Assembly (NCBI RefSeq): GCF_030551875.1
Contig: NZ_JAUOZU010000013.1
Location: 124,001 to 188,000 of the forward strand
Source: Fluviirhizobium alvei
GTDB taxonomy: Bacteria > Pseudomonadota > Alphaproteobacteria > Rhizobiales > Rhizobiaceae
Length of the DNA stretch: 64,000 bases
Reading direction: 5' to 3'
A model generated the notes under the pieces. It did no database searches. It worked only from the letters and a program-made list of their open reading frames with translations, and was not told the DNA's origin. The position numbers and the translations under genes are program-made. Below, piece by piece: positions 1 to 7,726 of the stretch (its first letter is position 1; every line of letters starts with the position of its first letter).

Positions 1-2
1 TG

Positions 3-389
3 TCAAACAGCATCTCGGTCGAAATGGCCTTGGCTTGCAGAATGCCACGCTATGTGGAAAAGGCGTCAGAAGCGGATGACGGCATGGTCGCGCTCATGAT
101 CGATAATGCCAGTCTCATTCTAAAGCCAGCGCTTGCGGTCATCCTTGCTGAATTGGCTCCGATGGAAATTCGACCCAAAGCGGGGATATTGGGGGATTGG
201 GCCTTATGGCACGGTGGCGGCAAAACTTCATGCCTGCCGCTTGAGGCTTTGACCATGCCAGGCAAAGCCCGCGATGACCTCTTGTTCATCCTTATTGGTC
301 GCGCCGTTCGTAGGTTCAAAGGGGCTTGCGCCTTGGCGGACTTCCATTCGCGGCTTGCGGACTTGTTCACGGTCGCGGACGCGGCTTAG
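3..389 (+). CDS. Hypothetical protein, N-terminus off the window
   Basis: The frame is open from the window edge to TAG at 387-389, giving at least 128 residues. It is followed 28 bases later by a good plus-strand terminator, which supports a real gene in this direction. The protein is alanine- and leucine-rich, with no motif I recognise. The first internal ATG is at 24, but the reading frame continues upstream of it. Confidence 0.35.
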   Translation, partial: SNSISVEMALACRMPRYVEKASEADDGMVALMIDNASLILKPALAVILAELAPMEIRPKAGILGDWALWHGGGKTSCLPLEALTMPGKARDDLLFILIGRAVRRFKGACALADFHSRLADLFTVADAA

Positions 390-417
390 GGAATTCGCTC
401 CACCCCCTATCATCAAG

Positions 418-445
418 CGCCCCACGTTGCCGCGTGGGGCGTTTT
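418..445 (+). terminator. Rho-independent terminator
   Basis: A perfect 9-bp stem (CGCCCCACG / CGTGGGGCG, 418-426 and 433-441) with a 6-base loop is followed by TTTT. The T-run is on the plus strand, so it serves the partial gene ending at 389. Confidence 0.8.
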
Positions 446-483
446 CGCGTTGGCTTCACAGCACCCGCTACCCGCACAAACAA

Positions 484-508
484 AAAGGCCGCCTTGCGTG
501 GCGGCCTC
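484..508 (-). terminator. Rho-independent terminator, minus strand
   Basis: An 8-bp stem (AGGCCGCC / GGCGGCCT, 486-493 and 500-507) is flanked on its left by A5, which reads as a T-run on the minus strand. It lies just beyond the stop of the small minus-strand gene 533-694. Confidence 0.75.
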
Positions 509-532
509 TTGCGATTAGTTCTGTGGGCGGAC

Positions 533-694
533 TTAGGCTTGATAGACTAGATGGACCGGCCCGAGGTCAACAAAGCGGCACCCGCCTTCCTCCCAGCGAT
601 CCACGCGCCAAAACGAAAACTTGCTCCAATTCATTTCCAGATAGGCGTCCTTGAAACCGAGTGCAGCCAGGACTTTTTCAGACCAAGTAAACAT
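533..694 (-). CDS. Small hypothetical protein (53 aa)
   Basis: A 53-residue protein starts MFTWSEKVLAALGFKDAYLE and is rich in Trp, Phe and basic residues. I chose the ATG at 694 because a good Shine-Dalgarno sequence (AAGGAAG, about 703-709) precedes it. A longer in-frame start at 730 lacks one. The minus-strand terminator at 484-508 follows. Function is unknown. It could be a small cargo or regulatory gene of the element. Confidence 0.5.
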   Translation of the reverse strand: MFTWSEKVLAALGFKDAYLEMNWSKFSFWRVDRWEEGGCRFVDLGPVHLVYQA

Positions 695-830
695 TGCGAA
701 CTTCCTTTCAACCTTTTGACCAATCGCCAACCTGCGATGAACAATCCTTATTGTATTCGAGACACAAAGTCAATGTTGATCGAAATTTTATCGATATATC
801 AAAAGCATATCCACTTTACACAAATAGAAT

Positions 831-913
831 AATGTGGCATTGATAAATAGTTACCACATTCCGCACATTCATCTAATCAACACTAAATCACTACCACATT
901 CCGAATATTGTGG
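831..913. repeat. Repeated TACCACATTCCG motif
   Basis: TACCACATTCCG occurs at 852-863 and exactly again at 892-903. Inverted partial copies (AATGTGG at 831-837, ATTGTGG at 907-913) flank them. The stretch is AT-rich and non-coding, between the divergent 53-aa gene and the serine recombinase. It looks like an operator or recombinase-binding region. The rest of the 695-1168 gap holds this array and the CGAAGC array, and no convincing gene. Confidence 0.45.
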
Positions 914-1034
914 AGTTGCCCAATGATATACTAAACAAAACGGGTGGATATTGGCAGAATACCTTGAGGCAACGGGACGGAAGACACCGGACCAACTGGC
1001 CGCGCAGCATACCCGCGAATTCCACCCAGTATGC

Positions 1035-1150
1035 GCTTCGATAAGGTATGCATGAAGCGAAGCGTGGTGGGGCCGCTACAGTAGCGCTTCGAAAAATGCC
1101 ATTGACCACCCATAGCGAAGCATGACATAACGAAGCACCTAAAACGAAGC
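1035..1150. promoter_or_regulatory. CGAAGC hexamer array, candidate res/operator site
   Basis: CGAAGC is found at 1058-1063, 1116-1121, 1131-1136 and 1145-1150, and its reverse complement GCTTCG at 1035-1040 and 1086-1091. That is six copies in 116 bp, directly before the serine recombinase gene. The last three are spaced 15 and 14 bp apart in the same orientation. Serine resolvases commonly act at repeat-containing res sites upstream of their own gene, so this is a reasonable candidate. That role is inference. Confidence 0.5.
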
Positions 1151-1168
1151 AAAGGAGCTTTGAATGCC

Positions 1169-1825
1169 ATGACTCTACTGCGAGCATACCTTCGAGCCAG
1201 TACCAAAGAGCAGGACGCGAGCCGTGCCCGATCCGACCTCGCCAAGTTTGCCCAAGAGCGAGGACTTAGGGTCGCGGGCTATTACGCGGAGAACGAAAGC
1301 GGTGCCTCACTCCAGCGGCCCGAACTGTTCCGCCTCCTCACCGACTCCGAACCTGGAGACATCCTCTTGGTCGAACAGGTGGACCGCCTCAGCCGACTTA
1401 ATGCCGACGACTGGGAGCGCCTCAAGGCCGAGATCAAGGCGAAGCAAGTCCGCGTGGTTGCCCTAGACCTGCCCACCTCCTGGATGCTCGCGACGGCGGA
1501 GCGGGATGATGTGCAATCGCGCATCCTAGAGGCCATCAACGGCATGATGCTGGACATGTTGGCGGCCATTGCGCGGAAAGACTACGAGGATCGGCGGCGG
1601 CGGCAAGCTCAGGGCATCGAGAGCGCCAAGGCACGGGGCGACTATAAAGGCAGGCCAGAGGATGAGGAGCGGAACGCGGCCATCATGAAACTCCTTGCAG
1701 GCGGCCAAAGCTGGCGTAGCATAGCGGCTGCAACGGGATGCTCGATGTCAACTCTCAGTCGGCTAGCAAAGCGTCTACGGGAGGCGGAAGCCAGCAAGGA
1801 GGGCCGCAATGTGGTCGAGGCTTAA
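1169..1825 (+). CDS. Serine recombinase (resolvase/invertase family)
   Basis: This 218-aa small serine recombinase begins MTLLRAYLRASTKEQD, with the catalytic serine at Ser11 in the usual Y-x-R-x-S context. The conserved EQVDRLSR segment of the catalytic domain lies near residue 70. The C-terminus (about 165-210) has a helix-turn-helix resembling resolvase DNA-binding domains. The ATG at 1169 has AAAGGAG at 1151-1157. An in-frame TTG at 1160 would be too close to it. The gene overlaps the next small gene by 17 bases. It probably resolves or inverts DNA at sites in the repeat-rich region just upstream. Degraded relatives of its 3' neighbourhood lie at 3289-3676. Confidence 0.88.
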   Translation: MTLLRAYLRASTKEQDASRARSDLAKFAQERGLRVAGYYAENESGASLQRPELFRLLTDSEPGDILLVEQVDRLSRLNADDWERLKAEIKAKQVRVVALDLPTSWMLATAERDDVQSRILEAINGMMLDMLAAIARKDYEDRRRRQAQGIESAKARGDYKGRPEDEERNAAIMKLLAGGQSWRSIAAATGCSMSTLSRLAKRLREAEASKEGRNVVEA

Positions 1826-2042
1826 GAAGCTGCTCATGGGGCTGGTAGAGGCAATTGATGGACCGCCCACTCCTCCTCTCCACCCACCATCCGGCCTCTC
1901 GACGGCAGAACAATGGGATCTCCTCCCGCCCATCAAGCGTGGCATGCAATGGGACAAGGAGGGGAGACTATGGGTCCACGAGATCAAGCGGTGCCCTGCG
2001 ACGGGACTTAGGGTCAGGATCACTCGGCAGGCCGCAGGGTGA
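1809..2042 (+). CDS. Conserved small protein of the element (77 aa)
   Basis: A 77-aa basic protein overlaps the recombinase 3' end by 17 bases, which suggests translational coupling. The central part is proline-rich (about 19-27) and the C-terminal half carries WDKEGRLWVHEIKRCP. A second copy at 3416-3676 shares most of this part and likewise follows a recombinase tail, so the gene is a conserved partner of the recombinase. After the TGA stop the same frame stays open for 28 codons, encoding a CxxC and CxC-containing stretch that ends with TAG at 2127-2129. Function is unknown. A recombination accessory factor is one possibility, but nothing proves it. Confidence 0.6.
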   Translation: MWSRLKKLLMGLVEAIDGPPTPPLHPPSGLSTAEQWDLLPPIKRGMQWDKEGRLWVHEIKRCPATGLRVRITRQAAG

Positions 2043-2141
2043 CTGGCACAGCAAAATGCTGTAGTATATTGCGACAACTGTAAACTTCTCGGGCACTACG
2101 TCGCATCGCGATGTGGCTGCGCAACCTAGGCAACGCTGCTG

Positions 2142-2927
2142 ATGTCAGAAACCAATGAACGCCTGAATATCAGCAATAACTGGATTGACTATACCGTAGC
2201 GGCTGGCCGAGGGGGAGCGGGATTCGTACCAGTTCTTGGTGGTGTAATAGGTGAGATAATTACTCAACTTGTTCCCAATCAACGAGTTGACCGTCTGGCG
2301 AAGTATCTAGGCATGCTTGACAATCGAGTTGAAGTAATGGAGCACCACATCAAGGAGTTTATCAAGAATGACCCGGAGAGTATTGCTTTGATAGAGGATG
2401 GAGCTTATGCCGCCGCAAGAGCAACCTCGCCCGACCGACTTGAAAAAATTGTAGCTTGCGTTGAATCAGGCCTGAAAGGGATGAGCGAAGAGGGATACTG
2501 GCGCCGGAGATTGCTATCCATTTATTGCGAGCTGAGTGACGAGGAAACCGCATTACTATATAAATTTTATCAATCATCCGTTATTCAAATAGGACCAAAG
2601 CCGCCATCCGATAATCAAAACAAAGACAACAATAAGCCAAAGGCAATCAAAAATGCGAAGGAGCGTTTGGAACTGTCTCAAAGCATAGAGGCCAGCTCCG
2701 CAAAACTTGAGCGAGTCGGTCTTTTATTCTTTGCAAATCAACTACAAAAAACCGAAAGATTCACAAGTGACCACACAAAGGTCTCACCACAATTACTTCC
2801 CATATTCGAATCAAGTGGCCGCCCAAAAGGAAAACGAAGAATTACATATCTTGGATTAAGATTATTACTGTCAATTGGCATGATATCCGATATTCCAATC
2901 GGAGCAGAAAGAATACCTGTGTCTTAG
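2142..2927 (+). CDS. Hypothetical cargo protein with hydrophobic segment (261 aa)
   Basis: The family is not recognised. Residues about 20-45 form a glycine-rich hydrophobic segment (GGAGFVPVLGGVIGEIITQL), followed by a largely helical, charged middle region and a low-complexity Gln/Asn/Lys stretch near 155-170. The gene is more AT-rich than its neighbours, especially in its 3' half, which fits horizontal acquisition. It sits in the cargo position between the small recombinase-linked ORF and the integrase remnant. A membrane-associated or defence role is possible but is inference. Confidence 0.6.
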   Translation: MSETNERLNISNNWIDYTVAAGRGGAGFVPVLGGVIGEIITQLVPNQRVDRLAKYLGMLDNRVEVMEHHIKEFIKNDPESIALIEDGAYAAARATSPDRLEKIVACVESGLKGMSEEGYWRRRLLSIYCELSDEETALLYKFYQSSVIQIGPKPPSDNQNKDNNKPKAIKNAKERLELSQSIEASSAKLERVGLLFFANQLQKTERFTSDHTKVSPQLLPIFESSGRPKGKRRITYLGLRLLLSIGMISDIPIGAERIPVS

Positions 2928-2993
2928 AGACACTGTTTAAAACTATAAATCAGCACGACAGTGGAAATAATACTTTGAACACTCTCCTATCGG

Positions 2994-3175
2994 CATAATC
3001 TTCTCCAGCTCCTCAGCGCAGCCCTTCAACATCACGTCCGACCTGCGGTATCCACGCGCCGAGCTGGCCGCTAGTTCCGCATGCTCCCTACCGGACGCCC
3101 TCCCCGAGATGTAATGAGCAGCCTCGGCGTCCACCCTGAAGCGGCGGCAAAGGCCCTCAAAGAGATGGCGAAAAG
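2994..3175 (-). pseudogene. Remnant of tyrosine integrase C-terminus
   Basis: The minus strand encodes about 60 residues almost identical to the last part of the intact integrase at 5146-6906: the FRHLFE box, AAHYISGRA and the SARGY segment with the presumed catalytic tyrosine. The nucleotide sequence matches about 5160-5340 closely. Upstream domains are absent, so only the 3' end of a second, related integrase survives. It marks the right end of the left-hand element copy. Confidence 0.85.
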
Positions 3176-3288
3176 GTGAAATACAGATGTCATCCTCAGT
3201 CAAGGGCGAGCTAACGTACCTACCCTGCGGAGCCTACTGGCGGGGTCTAGCACGAGATTACGCTCAACGGCGTGGTGCCCGCTAATAG

Positions 3289-3399
3289 GGCCTGACCAGA
3301 CAAACAGTCTACCGCATATTGGCCCACCCGATGATGGCCGAGAAGGCGCTGGTGGCCTGGGAAGGCAAGCGACAGGAGTTAGCAAAGCGCGATTCTTAG
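3289..3399 (+). pseudogene. Remnant of a serine recombinase C-terminal HTH
   Basis: After stop codons at 3283-3288 the frame reads GLTRQTVYRILAHPMMAEKA and continues to TAG at 3397-3399. RQTVYRI is typical of the C-terminal helix-turn-helix of resolvase-type serine recombinases. The catalytic domain is missing. The sequence differs from the C-terminus of the intact recombinase at 1169-1825, so it comes from another subfamily member. It is followed by the small-ORF relic, as the intact recombinase is followed by the intact small ORF. Confidence 0.6.
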
Positions 3400-3415
3400 A
3401 GTACTAGGGCGGGCC

Positions 3416-3676
3416 TTGCGCTGGGCCGAACCACTGATTGATGTGGATGCCCTTCCTCCTCCCCATCCACCATCCAGCCTCTCTACGGCAGAACAATTCG
3501 CTCACCTCCCGCCCATCAGGCTCGGCATCGAGTGGGACAAGCAAGGGCGGCTGTAGGCGCACGAGATCAAGCGGTGCCCTGTGACGGGGCTTAGGGTCAG
3601 GATCCCGCGGAAGTGCCTTGATGAGTCCCACAATTTTCAGTTGACGCAGAAACACTGCCACCAGAGAATAGAGTGA
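3416..3676 (+). pseudogene. Amber-interrupted copy of the 77-aa small protein
   Basis: The frame encodes LSTAEQFAHLPPIRLGIEWD then KQGRL, a TAG at 3554-3556, then AHEIKRCPVTGLRVRI. It aligns with the intact protein at 1809-2042 over most of its length. The amber codon falls exactly where the intact copy has the Trp of GRLWVHE. The frame stays open after the stop until TGA at 3674-3676. No convincing start with a ribosome site is present. I used the TTG at 3416. This is a recently inactivated duplicate, or a gene requiring amber suppression. Confidence 0.75.
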
Positions 3677-3707
3677 TGTGTTATGTCTGGACTAGGCTGG
3701 AGGAAAT

Positions 3708-4583
3708 ATGTCGAAGGAGGTCGCCTCAAACACAGCCAAGCGGTTTGATCGAAGCTGGATCATCGCATGGTCTTTGGTCGCTCTCTGGTTTCTAATTGTG
3801 TTTGCGCTGGTTATTCCACAGCTCCGGCACTGCGACAGCCTTACATACCCAGGGTTCTTGGAAAGGTTTCTTGCATGCAGGACGCCAATGGACCTGGGAG
3901 ACTTCCTTGCGGGTGCATTCGCGCCTCCGGCCTTTGTATTTCTAATTTTCACGGTATTCATCCAGTCGAAAGAGCTTAAGCTACAAAGAGAAGAGCTGCG
4001 CCTTACTCGGACTGAGGCTTCGGAATCCCGTCTTGCGCTTCAAGACCAGGCGCTGCAAATCACGGCGCAGACCGGTCTGCTACAGTTGGCAGAACAAGAG
4101 CGGAAATCCGCCGAACTCATTCGGAGGTTTGATGCCTTCGTTCTCCGTCTAGCAGGGCGTTTGAAAACAAGCAGGGAGGTATTTAGGCACCGCGACCGGT
4201 ATGGCCAAACGAGAGACATTGGAAACTTAGTGGACCTTGCGGGGAAGTTTGCCGACCAAAGCCTCGTACAGCACCTCGGGCTAGCTGTGTCGAGGACATA
4301 TACAACAAACGGGATCGAGTTTCCTTCAGAGTTAAGCCCCTATGAGTCGCACGACCCCTATGGATTTAAGAGAGTCTACCAGGCGCTTGAGGAACTGATA
4401 GCGCTCTATGACGAGCTGCCCCCTGAAGGAAAAATACGCGCAGATGCTTATGACCTGGTACCGCTTTTCTATGCGATGCAGGCGATGGCTATTAATTTGG
4501 ATAATATCGACATGGGAGTTGAGTTTGGCTCCCCTCCTCAGGGGTGGAAATTCGATTCCCAAGGAAAAACAATACGCGAGTAA
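3708..4583 (+). CDS. Two-TM, coiled-coil membrane protein, defence-like cargo (291 aa)
   Basis: A ribosome site (GGAGGA) lies just before the ATG. Residues about 18-40 and 65-87 are transmembrane helices separated by a short loop. A charged coiled coil (about 88-135, QSKELKLQREELRLTRTEAS) and a soluble C-terminal domain follow. The pattern GDFLAGAFAP before the second helix, then a coiled coil, recurs in membrane proteins annotated as putative phage abortive-infection or defence-island proteins. That resemblance is from memory and unverified. It occupies the cargo position of the right element copy, next to an intact integrase. Confidence 0.65.
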   Translation: MSKEVASNTAKRFDRSWIIAWSLVALWFLIVFALVIPQLRHCDSLTYPGFLERFLACRTPMDLGDFLAGAFAPPAFVFLIFTVFIQSKELKLQREELRLTRTEASESRLALQDQALQITAQTGLLQLAEQERKSAELIRRFDAFVLRLAGRLKTSREVFRHRDRYGQTRDIGNLVDLAGKFADQSLVQHLGLAVSRTYTTNGIEFPSELSPYESHDPYGFKRVYQALEELIALYDELPPEGKIRADAYDLVPLFYAMQAMAINLDNIDMGVEFGSPPQGWKFDSQGKTIRE

Positions 4584-4706
4584 AGGTTTAATCGCCAATC
4601 ACCGCTAGAGTCGTGCACATATGGCCCTGATCATCGGGTTAAGAAGCTCCCAGCAGCTCAAGGCATCGCCAGCAGGAATGTGCATCGCGGATCATGGAGG
4701 AATGAG

Positions 4707-5123
4707 GTGTTCACGCTATACGGGACCAAGCGTTCGGACGTACTGTACAGCCTCAAGCCCGTCGAAGTGTTTGCGGGCCGAGGTGATGATTGGCTGGGCG
4801 ACATCGGGAAGAGGCCCGACCGTCCGACTGCGGACATCTACCATGGTGGGGCCGGAGACGACTTCATTTTCACCTACAGCGGCAAAGACAAGGTGTTCGG
4901 GGACAGCGGGAATGACACCCTCGTGGCGAACACGTCGTCCTCTTTCAGCTATGATGGTGGGGAAGGCTTTGATGTCCTTGAGCTGAAGGTCAATGCTCCC
5001 GGTGGCTACCTCACAATGTGGGCAGGCGACGAGATAGTAGCCATCAAGGTTGGCGCTCAAATCGTATCATTGCACGATGTCGAGGCGGTTCTTATAAACA
5101 AGGACACCCTTCTTGAGCTATGA
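4707..5123 (+). CDS. Small RTX-like calcium-binding repeat protein
   Basis: A 138-aa protein is read from GTG at 4707, preceded by GGAGG at 4696-4700 with 6-base spacing. It contains nonapeptide-type motifs GGAGDDFIF, GDSGNDTLV and DGGEGFDVL (about 45-95), which bind Ca2+ in RTX proteins. There are only a few repeats, and no catalytic domain or clear signal peptide. RTX proteins usually leave by type I secretion through a C-terminal signal. It may be the tail of a once larger protein. It is followed 22 bases later by the convergent integrase stop. Confidence 0.55.
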   Translation: MFTLYGTKRSDVLYSLKPVEVFAGRGDDWLGDIGKRPDRPTADIYHGGAGDDFIFTYSGKDKVFGDSGNDTLVANTSSSFSYDGGEGFDVLELKVNAPGGYLTMWAGDEIVAIKVGAQIVSLHDVEAVLINKDTLLEL

Positions 5124-5145
5124 ATAGGACGGAGGAGGGTTCGGA

Positions 5146-6906
5146 TCAAACCTTGATCTGGACAATCTTCTCCAGCTCCTCAGCGTAGCCCTTCAACATC
5201 ACGTCTGACCCGCCGTATCCCCGCGCCGAGCTGGACGCCAGTTCCGCATGCTCCCTACCGAACGCCCTCCCCGAGATGTAATGAGCAGCCTCGGCGTCCA
5301 CCCTGTAGCGTCGGCAAAGGTCCTCAAAGAGATGGCGAAAAGCATGGCTGGCGGGAGGAAGATTGGCAACACCGGCAAAGACTGTCTCTGTGATCCACTC
5401 ATAAAGGTTCGCCTGGGTGCGTCTCGGAAACAGCGGACCAGATGCCGACGACTTGACGAATTCCAGGAGCCCCTCTTGGACCACGGCACTGTGGAGCGGA
5501 ACCTTGCGAGACTTGTGGGTCTTTGTGGTGCGGTCCCCGTCCGAGCGGACATGAGCGAACCAATGCCCCTCGATCTCCTCGAAGTCCTCCTTGGTGAGTT
5601 GGGCTGCCTCCCCCACCCTCATCCCCGAGTAGGCCAGCAGCCACGGGACCCAGCGTCTCTCCGCGAGCACCTCCTGCCGCGATGCCTTGAGGATCGTAGC
5701 CGCCTGTTCAAGGCTGTATGTGCGGGACCGACTGTCCACATCCTCGCGATCCGGGACGGCAAGCTCCTCCAGAGGGAGGCCAGAGGGGAAAAGCTGTCCG
5801 CTTGTCTGGCGTTGTCCCCAGTGAGTGACAGCTCTTATGGTGTTCGCTTTATCCCTCACCGTGGTCCGTGAGGCTCCGCCTTTGTGAAGGGCCTCCATCC
5901 AGCGCATGACCTCCGAAACTGTTACGGTGCTCGCCAGTTCGCTCTTCCTGAAGCGAGAGAACTCAAGCACTATTCGGCGGTACTTCTTGATGGTCGCTAT
6001 GGCCTTGCCGCGCCGAGAGGCCATCAGGGCAGTCTTGTCCTGTCCCCGCTTCTCCTCCTCGTCCACGATGTCCTCAAGGGTGAGCTTGAGGGTAGTCGGC
6101 GGGGCTGCCTTCTCCGAGGATGGTCTGGGACCTTCGTATGGGGGAATACGCTGAGCCCAGGCTGGCTCACTGTAGTCGCCCTCCTCCCAGCGAACCCTGA
6201 GACTACCAAGGGCGTCCAATAGTCGCTCCCCGCAGCGTTGGCGCAAGGAAGCCATTGTTTCAGCGTCCAGCCGCACACCCATCTGGCGGACAAGCTCATT
6301 CGCCCGCGCTACGCCCCAAATCTTGAGGATGTCTTCGGTCTGCCGATATAGCGACGCAAGGGCGCGGTGGCATGGAGTGCCTTTCGGTTCCTGTTCGAGG
6401 AGGCCCCGAATAGTGTCCAAGGCATCAAAGCGGTGGAGGAGCATAAGCCACTGCCCCAACTCAAAGAGCCGCTGTCTGTCAATGCTTGGACCAGGCTTGC
6501 AGTTAGATAGTTCGGCATCGATCTCATGTTTGACCAGCTCCTGCCAGATACGAAGCTCCCCCGGATCGGCCTCCTTGGCGCGAAGGAACGCAAGGGCGTC
6601 CTGACCGGCCAGCGCATGGATATCCTTGTGGGTTAGGCGCAGCGGGGCGTCATTAAGAAGCGACCGCCATCTTGCCCACATCTCCTCGACCTCAAGGCTG
6701 ACACGCTTGTAAGCCAGCGCAGCGGCCTTGGGGTCCCGAGTACCGAGCGAGCGCTGAACCTCGTGAGTCACCTTCAGCTTCATCGCCAGGAGTTTCTCGC
6801 GCTGATTCCACAGGTCGGTTGGGGTCACCTTCCTGAAATAAAACATCCCGGAGTTAGGATGCGGCCACGGGCCAGTCATGACCCATCTCCTTCGCCTGGT
6901 CGCCAT
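5146..6906 (-). CDS. Tyrosine-type site-specific integrase (586 aa)
   Basis: A long phage-type integrase. The N-terminal ~250 residues form an extended region typical of integrases of about 500-600 aa, followed by a SAM-like core-binding domain (about 290-390) and the catalytic domain (about 410-580). Catalytic features seen are SGMRVGEAAQL (Arg box), HAFRHLFEDLCRR (His-x-x-Arg) and Tyr564 in SARGYGG. The gene starts 77 bp from the tRNA-Val 3' end, so it most likely catalysed insertion there. A fragment of a near relative is at 2994-3175. The gene converges with the RTX-like gene. Confidence 0.92.
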   Translation of the reverse strand: MATRRRRWVMTGPWPHPNSGMFYFRKVTPTDLWNQREKLLAMKLKVTHEVQRSLGTRDPKAAALAYKRVSLEVEEMWARWRSLLNDAPLRLTHKDIHALAGQDALAFLRAKEADPGELRIWQELVKHEIDAELSNCKPGPSIDRQRLFELGQWLMLLHRFDALDTIRGLLEQEPKGTPCHRALASLYRQTEDILKIWGVARANELVRQMGVRLDAETMASLRQRCGERLLDALGSLRVRWEEGDYSEPAWAQRIPPYEGPRPSSEKAAPPTTLKLTLEDIVDEEEKRGQDKTALMASRRGKAIATIKKYRRIVLEFSRFRKSELASTVTVSEVMRWMEALHKGGASRTTVRDKANTIRAVTHWGQRQTSGQLFPSGLPLEELAVPDREDVDSRSRTYSLEQAATILKASRQEVLAERRWVPWLLAYSGMRVGEAAQLTKEDFEEIEGHWFAHVRSDGDRTTKTHKSRKVPLHSAVVQEGLLEFVKSSASGPLFPRRTQANLYEWITETVFAGVANLPPASHAFRHLFEDLCRRYRVDAEAAHYISGRAFGREHAELASSSARGYGGSDVMLKGYAEELEKIVQIKV

Positions 6907-6983
6907 ACGTGAACCTTTCTGTAGCAGTCCGTCTTGCGGAAAGCCAGCAAATCCAGTATGTTCATGAAGCTACAGGAAGAAAT

Positions 6984-7059
<76 letters not shown>

Positions 7060-7264: not shown

Positions 7265-7726
7265 ATGACCCGTTTGAAATCCGATTTTCTTTATCTCGGC
7301 CTGTTCCTGCTCGTAGTGCTGGCGGTCGGTTTCACGATCGGCTTCGTTTTCCGGCCGGGAGACTGGTATCTCGCCCTCAACAAACCCTTCTTCACGCCGC
7401 CCGGCTGGGTGTTCGGCCCGGTCTGGACGATTGTCTATATCCTTATTGCCGTTGCCGGCTGGAGAACCTTTGTGACCGAAGGCGCAAGCGCGCCCGCCTT
7501 CCGCCTTTGGCTCGTGCAGATGCTGCTGAACTGGGCCTGGACGCCCGTCTTCTTCGGCGCCCAGCTGATCCTGCCGGCGCTGGTGATCATCCTTGCGCTC
7601 CTGGCCACGACCGTTCTGTTCATGATCCGCTCGCGGGACCGGATCGCAACTGCCTGCTTTGCCCCCTATGCGCTCTGGCTCACCTTCGCTAGCAGCCTGA
7701 ACCTGGCGGTTGCCATTCTCAACTGA
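7265..7726 (+). CDS. tspO: TspO/MBR family membrane protein
   Basis: This 153-aa protein has five predicted transmembrane helices, the family's usual length and topology. Landmarks are LNKPFFTPPGWVFGPVWTIV near 38-60 and the Trp/Asn-rich LLNWAWTPVFFG near 88-100, both hallmarks of TspO tryptophan-rich sensory proteins. TspO binds porphyrins and related ligands in the membrane and modulates stress and tetrapyrrole responses. AAGAGGA lies before the ATG. The 205-bp gap between tRNA-Val and this gene shows nothing definite. Confidence 0.93.
   Translation: MTRLKSDFLYLGLFLLVVLAVGFTIGFVFRPGDWYLALNKPFFTPPGWVFGPVWTIVYILIAVAGWRTFVTEGASAPAFRLWLVQMLLNWAWTPVFFGAQLILPALVIILALLATTVLFMIRSRDRIATACFAPYALWLTFASSLNLAVAILN

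What the first reader, a model, noticed from the sequence alone, without database searches (positions are those of the whole stretch)
1035..6984. Tandem modules of recombinase, small ORF, variable cargo and integrase at tRNA-Val
Left copy: intact serine recombinase (1169-1825), intact small ORF (1809-2042), cargo (2142-2927), integrase remnant (2994-3175). Right copy: recombinase tail (3289-3399), amber-broken small ORF (3416-3676), cargo (3708-5123), intact integrase (5146-6906). Order and orientation match, and the decay is complementary. This suggests one family of small cargo-carrying elements that stack at the same tRNA, perhaps with two recombinases doing different jobs: integration by the Tyr enzyme, resolution or exchange by the Ser enzyme. 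I know of no named element with this layout.
Basis: partly seen in the sequence, partly recalled or inferred. Interest (0 to 1): 0.78.

Follow-up and report, generated by a model that had tools for sequence, protein, structure and literature searches.

The report
Fused double cargo in satellite-like element
Next to a valine tRNA gene of a rhizobium-type bacterium sits a 15-kb mobile element that looks like two related elements that landed side by side and fused by a deletion, keeping both sets of cargo; its relatives in other alphaproteobacteria suggest it may travel inside phage particles.

Summary
Two modules (serine recombinase, small ORF, cargo, integrase 3' end) lie in the same order with complementary decay; the repeats are 187 nt at 93% and 177 nt at 80%. 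They are not free-standing elements. They form the right half of one 15.3-kb element bounded by a 26-bp repeat of the tRNA-Val 3' end, its left end 8.3 kb outside the window. Its core encodes a Pol I/T7-type polymerase fold, a T7-type tail nozzle and part of a T7-type internal virion protein. Relatives with one module occur at tRNA-Val (Rhizobium sp. FKL33) and tRNA-Arg. Homology stops at the small ORF's end and the integrase's end, so the cargo slot is real. Best history: two elements in tandem at one tRNA, fused by a deletion; tandems exist in relatives. The serine enzyme resembles plasmid resolvases and has a res-like array upstream. Polymerase-bearing relatives are mostly alphaproteobacterial; att-bounded ones span 7-18 kb, some with known defence genes. 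Phage satellite is the likeliest lifestyle, not shown. The small ORF travels with the serine recombinase, not with this integrase.

The parts
1..7009 (.). Right part of a 15.3-kb integrative element; the left 8.3 kb lies outside the window (G000:C5:115703 to window start)
   Evidence: 26-bp direct repeat (25/26; 23 bp exact) of the tRNA-Val 3' end at both ends
1034..1150 (+). res-like array of CTTCG/CGAAG half-sites upstream of the serine recombinase, with a TTGACC -35-like box (my reading of the sequence)
   Evidence: Conserved in G002 and G003 while flanks diverge; the motif recurs upstream of homologous recombinases of G290, G276, G062 and plasmid X9; in G334, G159, pMOC3 and pAU20f a similar layout with other half-site letters is seen by eye only
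1169..1825 (+). Serine recombinase (resolvase type), copy A
   Evidence: PF00239; closest solved chains Tn552 bin3, Tn3 and gamma-delta resolvases; dN/dS 0.07 vs G002
1809..2042 (+). 77-aa small ORF (sm77), copy A; its 3' end is the left border of the cargo slot
   Evidence: 69% aa in G002, 68% in G003, dN/dS 0.14 and 0.21; homology of G000 with G002 and G003 stops at 2029-2030
2142..2927 (+). Cargo A, 261-aa protein of unknown family
   Evidence: No Pfam, NCBIfam or PADLOC match; relative in 1 other of 377 genomes of the order
2989..3175 (-). 3' remnant of integrase A
   Evidence: 187 nt, 93% identical to 5156-5342
3289..3399 (+). C-terminal remnant of a serine recombinase B, apparently of another subtype than copy A
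   Evidence: Weak matches (E 0.0007-0.004; 0.005 and above) to serine recombinases of polymerase-bearing loci and of some plasmids
3416..3676 (+). sm77 copy B, interrupted by TAG
   Evidence: 80% over 177 nt to copy A; one TAG inside
3708..4583 (+). Cargo B1, 291 aa, unknown family
   Evidence: ORF; no Pfam or PADLOC family at the cut-offs used; only weak sub-threshold matches
4680..5123 (+). Cargo B2, 147-aa ORF with RTX calcium-binding repeats
   Evidence: PF00353 E 2e-11
5146..6906 (-). Intact tyrosine integrase (DUF6538 + SAM-like + catalytic domains); its 3' end is the right border of the cargo slot
   Evidence: PF20172, PF02899, PF00589; 81% aa to G002, dN/dS 0.06
6984..7059 (-). tRNA-Val(TAC); 6984-7009 is the att copy
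   Evidence: ARAGORN; repeat

Best explanation
The region is the right half of one 15.3-kb integrative element at tRNA-Val. Two related elements once sat in tandem at this tRNA. A deletion from integrase A through the middle att and the core of B into recombinase B fused them into one unit: core and cargo A, plus cargo B, integrase B and the outer att sites. How it works: the tyrosine integrase integrates and excises the element; its own Pol I/T7-type polymerase replicates or primes the excised circle; the serine enzyme resolves multimers at the upstream res-like site; the slot between sm77 and the integrase takes changing genes, in some relatives anti-phage genes. Transfer is most likely as a phage satellite of T7-like podoviruses; the nozzle and gp16-like internal virion proteins would enter helper particles and promote ejection of satellite DNA. 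Shown by sequence: att repeats, slot borders, shared layout, purifying selection, the array upstream of the recombinase, polymerase fold by prediction. Inferred: tandem-plus-deletion history, resolvase role, replication role, satellite lifestyle, ejection role.
Against: No packaging, induction or transfer was observed and no helper is known. A gp16-like gene was found in only 6 of 74 named polymerase loci, 3 of the 38 with full flanks, so it is not general. In this genome only the last ~239 residues of it remain. The cargoes here and in G002 match no known defence family convincingly. The two integrase copies are 93% identical but the sm copies 80%, so rates or donors were unequal. G062 is a metagenome-assembled genome, and its second element has no polymerase hit; no outer att was found for the second element of G300. 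The fold comparison does not separate DNA from RNA polymerases.
Confidence: 0.6

Rival explanations
1. Decayed T7-like prophage at tRNA-Val, its virion genes being leftovers.
For: Nozzle is full length and matches T7-like phages; the virion protein here is truncated.
Against: 15-18 kb relatives with overlapping small sets of virion genes; the 7 left-half ORFs scanned by PHROGs show no capsid, portal or terminase; purifying selection; gp16-like proteins of 10 elements separate from the 7 phages sampled.
Confidence: 0.12
2. Integrative mobilizable element or integrated plasmid moved by conjugation, its resolvase and polymerase being plasmid maintenance genes.
For: The resolvase is 65-75% identical to those of several rhizobial and methylobacterial plasmids; some share the upstream array.
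Against: No relaxase among the 25 of 51 Pfam families shown for 76 accessory ORFs of 10 polymerase-bearing elements (the list is cut, so inconclusive); T7-type virion proteins have no known role in conjugation (recalled).
Confidence: 0.25
3. In-place duplication of the right end followed by cargo replacement, or uptake of cargo with flanks by homologous recombination from a relative, without tandem integration.
For: Flanks of the slot are homologous in the copies compared, so homologous recombination could deliver cargo.
Against: The second copy carries what looks like a recombinase end of another subtype and 20% diverged sm77, so it came from a different element; tandems are seen in relatives.
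Confidence: 0.2

Closest known systems
PICMI satellites of virulent vibriophages (PMC10803314; abstract, introduction and the Results sections on excision/replication and on distribution read)
   Same: Small integrated element with its own integrase and replication protein, no capsid remodelling genes, defence cargo, a small gene overlapping a recombinase gene; [quoted passage not shown]
   Different: PICMIs average 6.7 kb, sit next to fis in Vibrionaceae and use int, alpA and prim; here tRNA genes, a Pol I/T7-type polymerase, a serine resolvase and, in some members, T7-type virion proteins
Tycheposons and VEIMEs (named in passages of PMC11389934 and in the introduction of PMC10803314; the original VEIME paper is not held; tycheposon paper not read)
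   Same: Integrative elements proposed as satellites; further details recalled only
   Different: Marine; gene content could not be compared
CIME/IME tandem accretion (PMC5704250, passages read)
   Same: Elements integrate in tandem at a shared att site, decay, and form composites
   Different: Those depend on conjugation; here the composite looks fused by an internal deletion that keeps both cargoes and the outer att sites
Plasmid resolvase-res systems (plasmids X9, pMOC3, pAU20f)
   Same: 66-70% identical recombinase; an upstream array, by motif in X9 and by eye in the other two
   Different: Here inside a tRNA-integrated element with a tyrosine integrase
tRNA hot spots of phage-related sequences in Sinorhizobium meliloti (PMC11476347, passages read)
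   Same: Rhizobial elements with tyrosine integrases at tRNA genes
   Different: The passages seen mention no polymerase/resolvase element; the words polymerase and resolvase do not occur in its text

Membership tests
Phage satellite | Integrated at a specific site with own integrase and att repeats | tested here: met
Phage satellite | Lacks a full set of virion genes | tested here: met
   15.3 kb between att sites; no capsid, portal or terminase among the 7 left-half ORFs scanned by PHROGs; some small ORFs left unscanned
Phage satellite | Packaged in helper particles, induced by a helper | not testable with these tools
   Needs infection experiments
PICMI | Integration next to fis in Vibrionaceae | tested here: not met
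   tRNA-Val in a genome whose relatives are rhizobial
PICMI | int + alpA + prim | tested here: inconclusive
   Integrase yes; a Pol I/T7-type polymerase instead of a recognised primase; no AlpA family among the matches seen (the last list cut)
T7-like prophage (Autographiviridae) | Capsid, portal, terminase and T7-type RNA polymerase genes | tested here: not met
   Not among the 7 left-half ORFs scanned by sequence; 15.3 kb against 37.6-46.2 kb of the seven related phage records fetched. Caveat: the polymerase fold is tied with T7 RNA polymerase
Integrative mobilizable element | Relaxase and/or oriT | tested here: inconclusive
   No relaxase in the 25 of 51 families shown for 76 ORFs; oriT not tested
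Serine resolvase | Resolvase N-terminal domain and HTH | tested here: met
   PF00239 and HTH_23, solved resolvase chains
Serine resolvase | res site upstream with several dimer sites | tested here: inconclusive
   Conserved array of half-sites; binding and recombination not tested
Pol I/T7-type (family A) polymerase | Palm/fingers fold with conserved acidic motifs | tested here: met
Pol I/T7-type (family A) polymerase | DNA rather than RNA polymerase | tested here: inconclusive

The most novel reading that the evidence does not exclude
A family of integrative satellites parasitises T7-like podoviruses of Alphaproteobacteria. A branch of it captured the phage's gp16-type DNA-ejection protein once and has kept it as a satellite gene, so that particles built by the helper deliver satellite DNA with the satellite's own ejection protein (and, in two known members, its own tail nozzle). 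Members gain cargo by stacking at a shared tRNA att site and fusing by deletion, with the resolvase keeping the replicating circle monomeric.
Probability: 0.35. Interest if true: 0.82.

Novelty: new variant of a known kind. Interest (0 to 1): 0.64.

Why it matters
If right, it adds a widespread satellite-like family (26 of 109 sampled genera of this bacterial family hold a polymerase relative at E <= 1e-10) with an unusual way to exploit a phage, supplying the ejection protein instead of remodelling the capsid, and a readable fossil of how such elements gain cargo. The cargo is also an address for new anti-phage genes: some relatives hold type I and type IIG restriction, TIR, OLD-like and McrB-like genes between their att sites, so the unknown proteins at 2142-2927 and 3708-4583 are testable candidates.

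Tried and rejected
Small ORF linked to this integrase: rejected, G003 has sm77 with a distant integrase at another tRNA. Recombinase tail as a second copy of the left recombinase: rejected, no DNA repeat, weak matches to other recombinases (the plasmid hits include Pseudochrobactrum and Methylobacterium plasmids, so the tail is not proof of a sister element). Cargo as known defence genes: PADLOC gave nothing for the window's three cargo ORFs and, of three G002 cargo proteins, only a weak match for one. In relatives I scanned 10 large accessory proteins chosen by size: 5 gave strong defence matches, 1 a weak one, 4 none. sm77 structure: two-sequence model, pLDDT 70, pTM 0.52, not used. sm77 in plasmids: none. 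Polymerase profile against PDB sequences: nothing relevant; only the fold comparison placed it. Shinella PSBB067: its resolvase lacks the array, against universality. Literature: searches returned no paper; others returned papers, none of which, in the listings or passages seen, describes this element. That speaks for this open-access library only.

Limits: the HMMs for recombinase, integrase and polymerase were built from these loci, while background for serine recombinases used Pfam (the total of 65 and about 92 Mb are my sums). My own control of 309 kb gave 1 recombinase hit, in the G212 region, and no integrase or polymerase hit. The phage tree used 7 of 66 matching phage records; the phage rows are long branches, the root is by midpoint, and six rows have unusual composition. 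Several dS values are near saturation. Foldseek TM-scores for the polymerase are low (0.21-0.33); its first ~160 residues are barely tested. For one search I gave 76 of the 109 accessory ORFs, leaving out G258, G011 and six small ORFs. One search lists one integrase with two tRNAs.
Full report
Observation. The two repeats, integrase 3' end (187 nt, 93%) and small ORF (177 nt, 80%), cannot be chance (E 3e-75 and 1e-42). The second cargo is two ORFs. The recombinase tail at 3289-3399 looks real but belongs to another recombinase subtype.

Relatives. G002, whose contig has the length of and matches Rhizobium sp. FKL33, has a colinear 15.5-kb element at tRNA-Val with one module: polymerase 92%, recombinase 89%, sm77 68%, integrase 81%, a full-length gp16-like protein (1225 aa), no nozzle hit. 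G003 has an 18.1-kb element at tRNA-Arg with sm77, recombinase, nozzle, gp16-like protein and polymerase (several of them split over reading frames in this assembly), but a distant integrase (29%) and another module order, plus a 1.9-kb remnant at tRNA-Val. G002 and G003 share the gp16 region at 92% and the orf141-res-recombinase-sm77 block at 86% while their integrases and slots differ: these elements are mosaics. The eight genes compared between G000 and G002 show dN/dS 0.04-0.19, sm77 vs G003 0.21, with some dS near saturation.

The cargo slot. In the pairs G000/G002 and G000/G003 the left homology block ends at window 2029-2030, the last codons of sm77; in G002/G003 it also ends at sm77; in G000/G002 the right block begins at 5154, the last codons of the integrase. 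The internal repeats have the same borders. G002's slot holds three large ORFs (288, 411 and 252 aa); G003's is 0.74 kb. In G159 the gap between serine recombinase and integrase holds a TIR protein, in G015 an McrB-like domain. Elsewhere between the att repeats of relatives lie a type I restriction system (G334), type IIG restriction and UzuA (G300) and an OLD-like ATPase (G146). Of 10 large accessory proteins chosen by size, 5 had strong PADLOC matches, 1 a weak one, 4 none. The window's own cargoes match no PADLOC family.

How two modules arose. In a tandem the order towards the tRNA is core A, cargo A, integrase A, att, core B, cargo B, integrase B, tRNA. A deletion from within integrase A into recombinase B leaves exactly what is seen. 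In line with it: the surviving B recombinase end differs from A and resembles recombinases of polymerase-bearing loci (L160, G146/L174, L208; E 0.0007-0.004) and one on a Neorhizobium galegae replicon where a polymerase homologue lies about 3 kb away, though such short weak matches also go to ordinary plasmids. Tandems exist: G062 (a metagenome-assembled genome) has att copies at 7402, 20964 and 34611 with two integrases and two serine recombinases, the second element without a polymerase hit; G300 has a second integrase beside the far att. Tandem accretion is known for conjugative and mobilizable islands (PMC5704250, passages read). No sister strain with the intact array was seen.

The serine recombinase. 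It resembles resolvases (that 2r0q is Sin is recalled) and plasmid enzymes at 61-75% in the 15 rows listed. Upstream lies an array of CTTCG/CGAAG half-sites, conserved in G002 and G003. The same motif lies upstream of the homologues in G290, G276, G062 and plasmid X9; in G334, G159, pMOC3 and pAU20f a similar layout with other half-site letters is my reading by eye; the Shinella copy lacks it. Multimer resolution is the likely job (inference). sm77 overlaps it by 17 nt; its role is unknown (in PICMI115 a small gene overlapping int is needed for excision, PMC10803314 section on distribution).

Breadth. Polymerase relatives at E <= 1e-10 occur in 38 of 394 genomes of the family. A scan of named genomes gave 74 loci, 67 of them alphaproteobacterial by title. 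Of the 74, 51 have a serine recombinase, 53 a tyrosine integrase, 42 both; of the 38 with full flanks 32, 35 and 31; in 23 of 38 the integrase abuts a tRNA. Among my 25 unnamed-genome regions with the polymerase, 22 have a serine recombinase. Background: 65 PF00239 matches in 21 genomes, about 92 Mb, so about 0.6 expected in 38 loci. In the 42 loci with both, the recombinase lies between polymerase and integrase in 18, on the other side in 23, and the integrase lies between in 1: the window's order is common but not fixed. Of 34 tRNA-integrase pairs (33 loci), 21 show the att repeat inside held DNA, 7.0-15.5 kb away.

Satellite or not. The gp16-like proteins of 10 elements lie on one side of a 100/100 branch from 7 Autographiviridae phages (7 of 66 matching records, long phage branches, midpoint root). 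They are 36-53% identical to the FKL33 protein (96% for the near-copy in G003) against 24-27% for the phages. Mostly full-length and diverse, they look like a gene kept by the elements rather than leftovers of separate prophages. The seven related phages fetched are Autographiviridae of 37.6-46.2 kb; the elements are about a third of that, as typical for satellites (PMC10803314 introduction). The role of T7 gp16 in DNA ejection is recalled. But only 6 of 74 named polymerase loci show this gene, so the wider family may use other helpers or another route, and this genome's copy is truncated.

Verdict. Observation confirmed; interpretation partly right. A fused double-cargo element of a widespread family for which the papers searched gave no description; satellite lifestyle likely but unproven.

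Noticed in passing
G011:C1:204049-221710 (L116, L106): 17.6-kb element at tRNA-Val with a related integrase (41%) but with a phage portal gene (PF04860) and no hit to this polymerase: another element class at the same tRNA.
   Followed up: partly
G003:C1:173211-175235 (L044): 1.9-kb remnant of a tRNA-Val element (orf207 and about the first 55 residues of the gp16-like protein), while G003 has a larger element at tRNA-Arg.
   Followed up: partly
G241:C1 (L088:11879-14836): 985-aa protein with phage lysozyme and endolysin matches beside the gp16-like gene; similar proteins in the AAP43 and Peteryoungia aggregata loci at tRNA-Phe.
   Followed up: partly
window 4680-5123: RTX calcium-binding ORF as cargo, 147 aa, possibly a fragment of a larger gene.
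   Followed up: no
G002:C13 tRNA-Pro (about 57604): Another integrase (43%) beside tRNA-Pro with att copies 17.8 and 19.6 kb away, perhaps a second stacked array.
   Followed up: no
G194:C37 (L109): Polymerase locus flanked by a 61-nt duplication of tRNA-Val(CAC), so that two tRNA-like copies lie 7.9 kb apart.
   Followed up: no
IMGVR_UViG_2928595623_000001 (L054, L215): IMG/VR holds a 31.7-kb predicted virus with this element's polymerase and cargo A at 100%, so a virus caller flagged the region.
   Followed up: no
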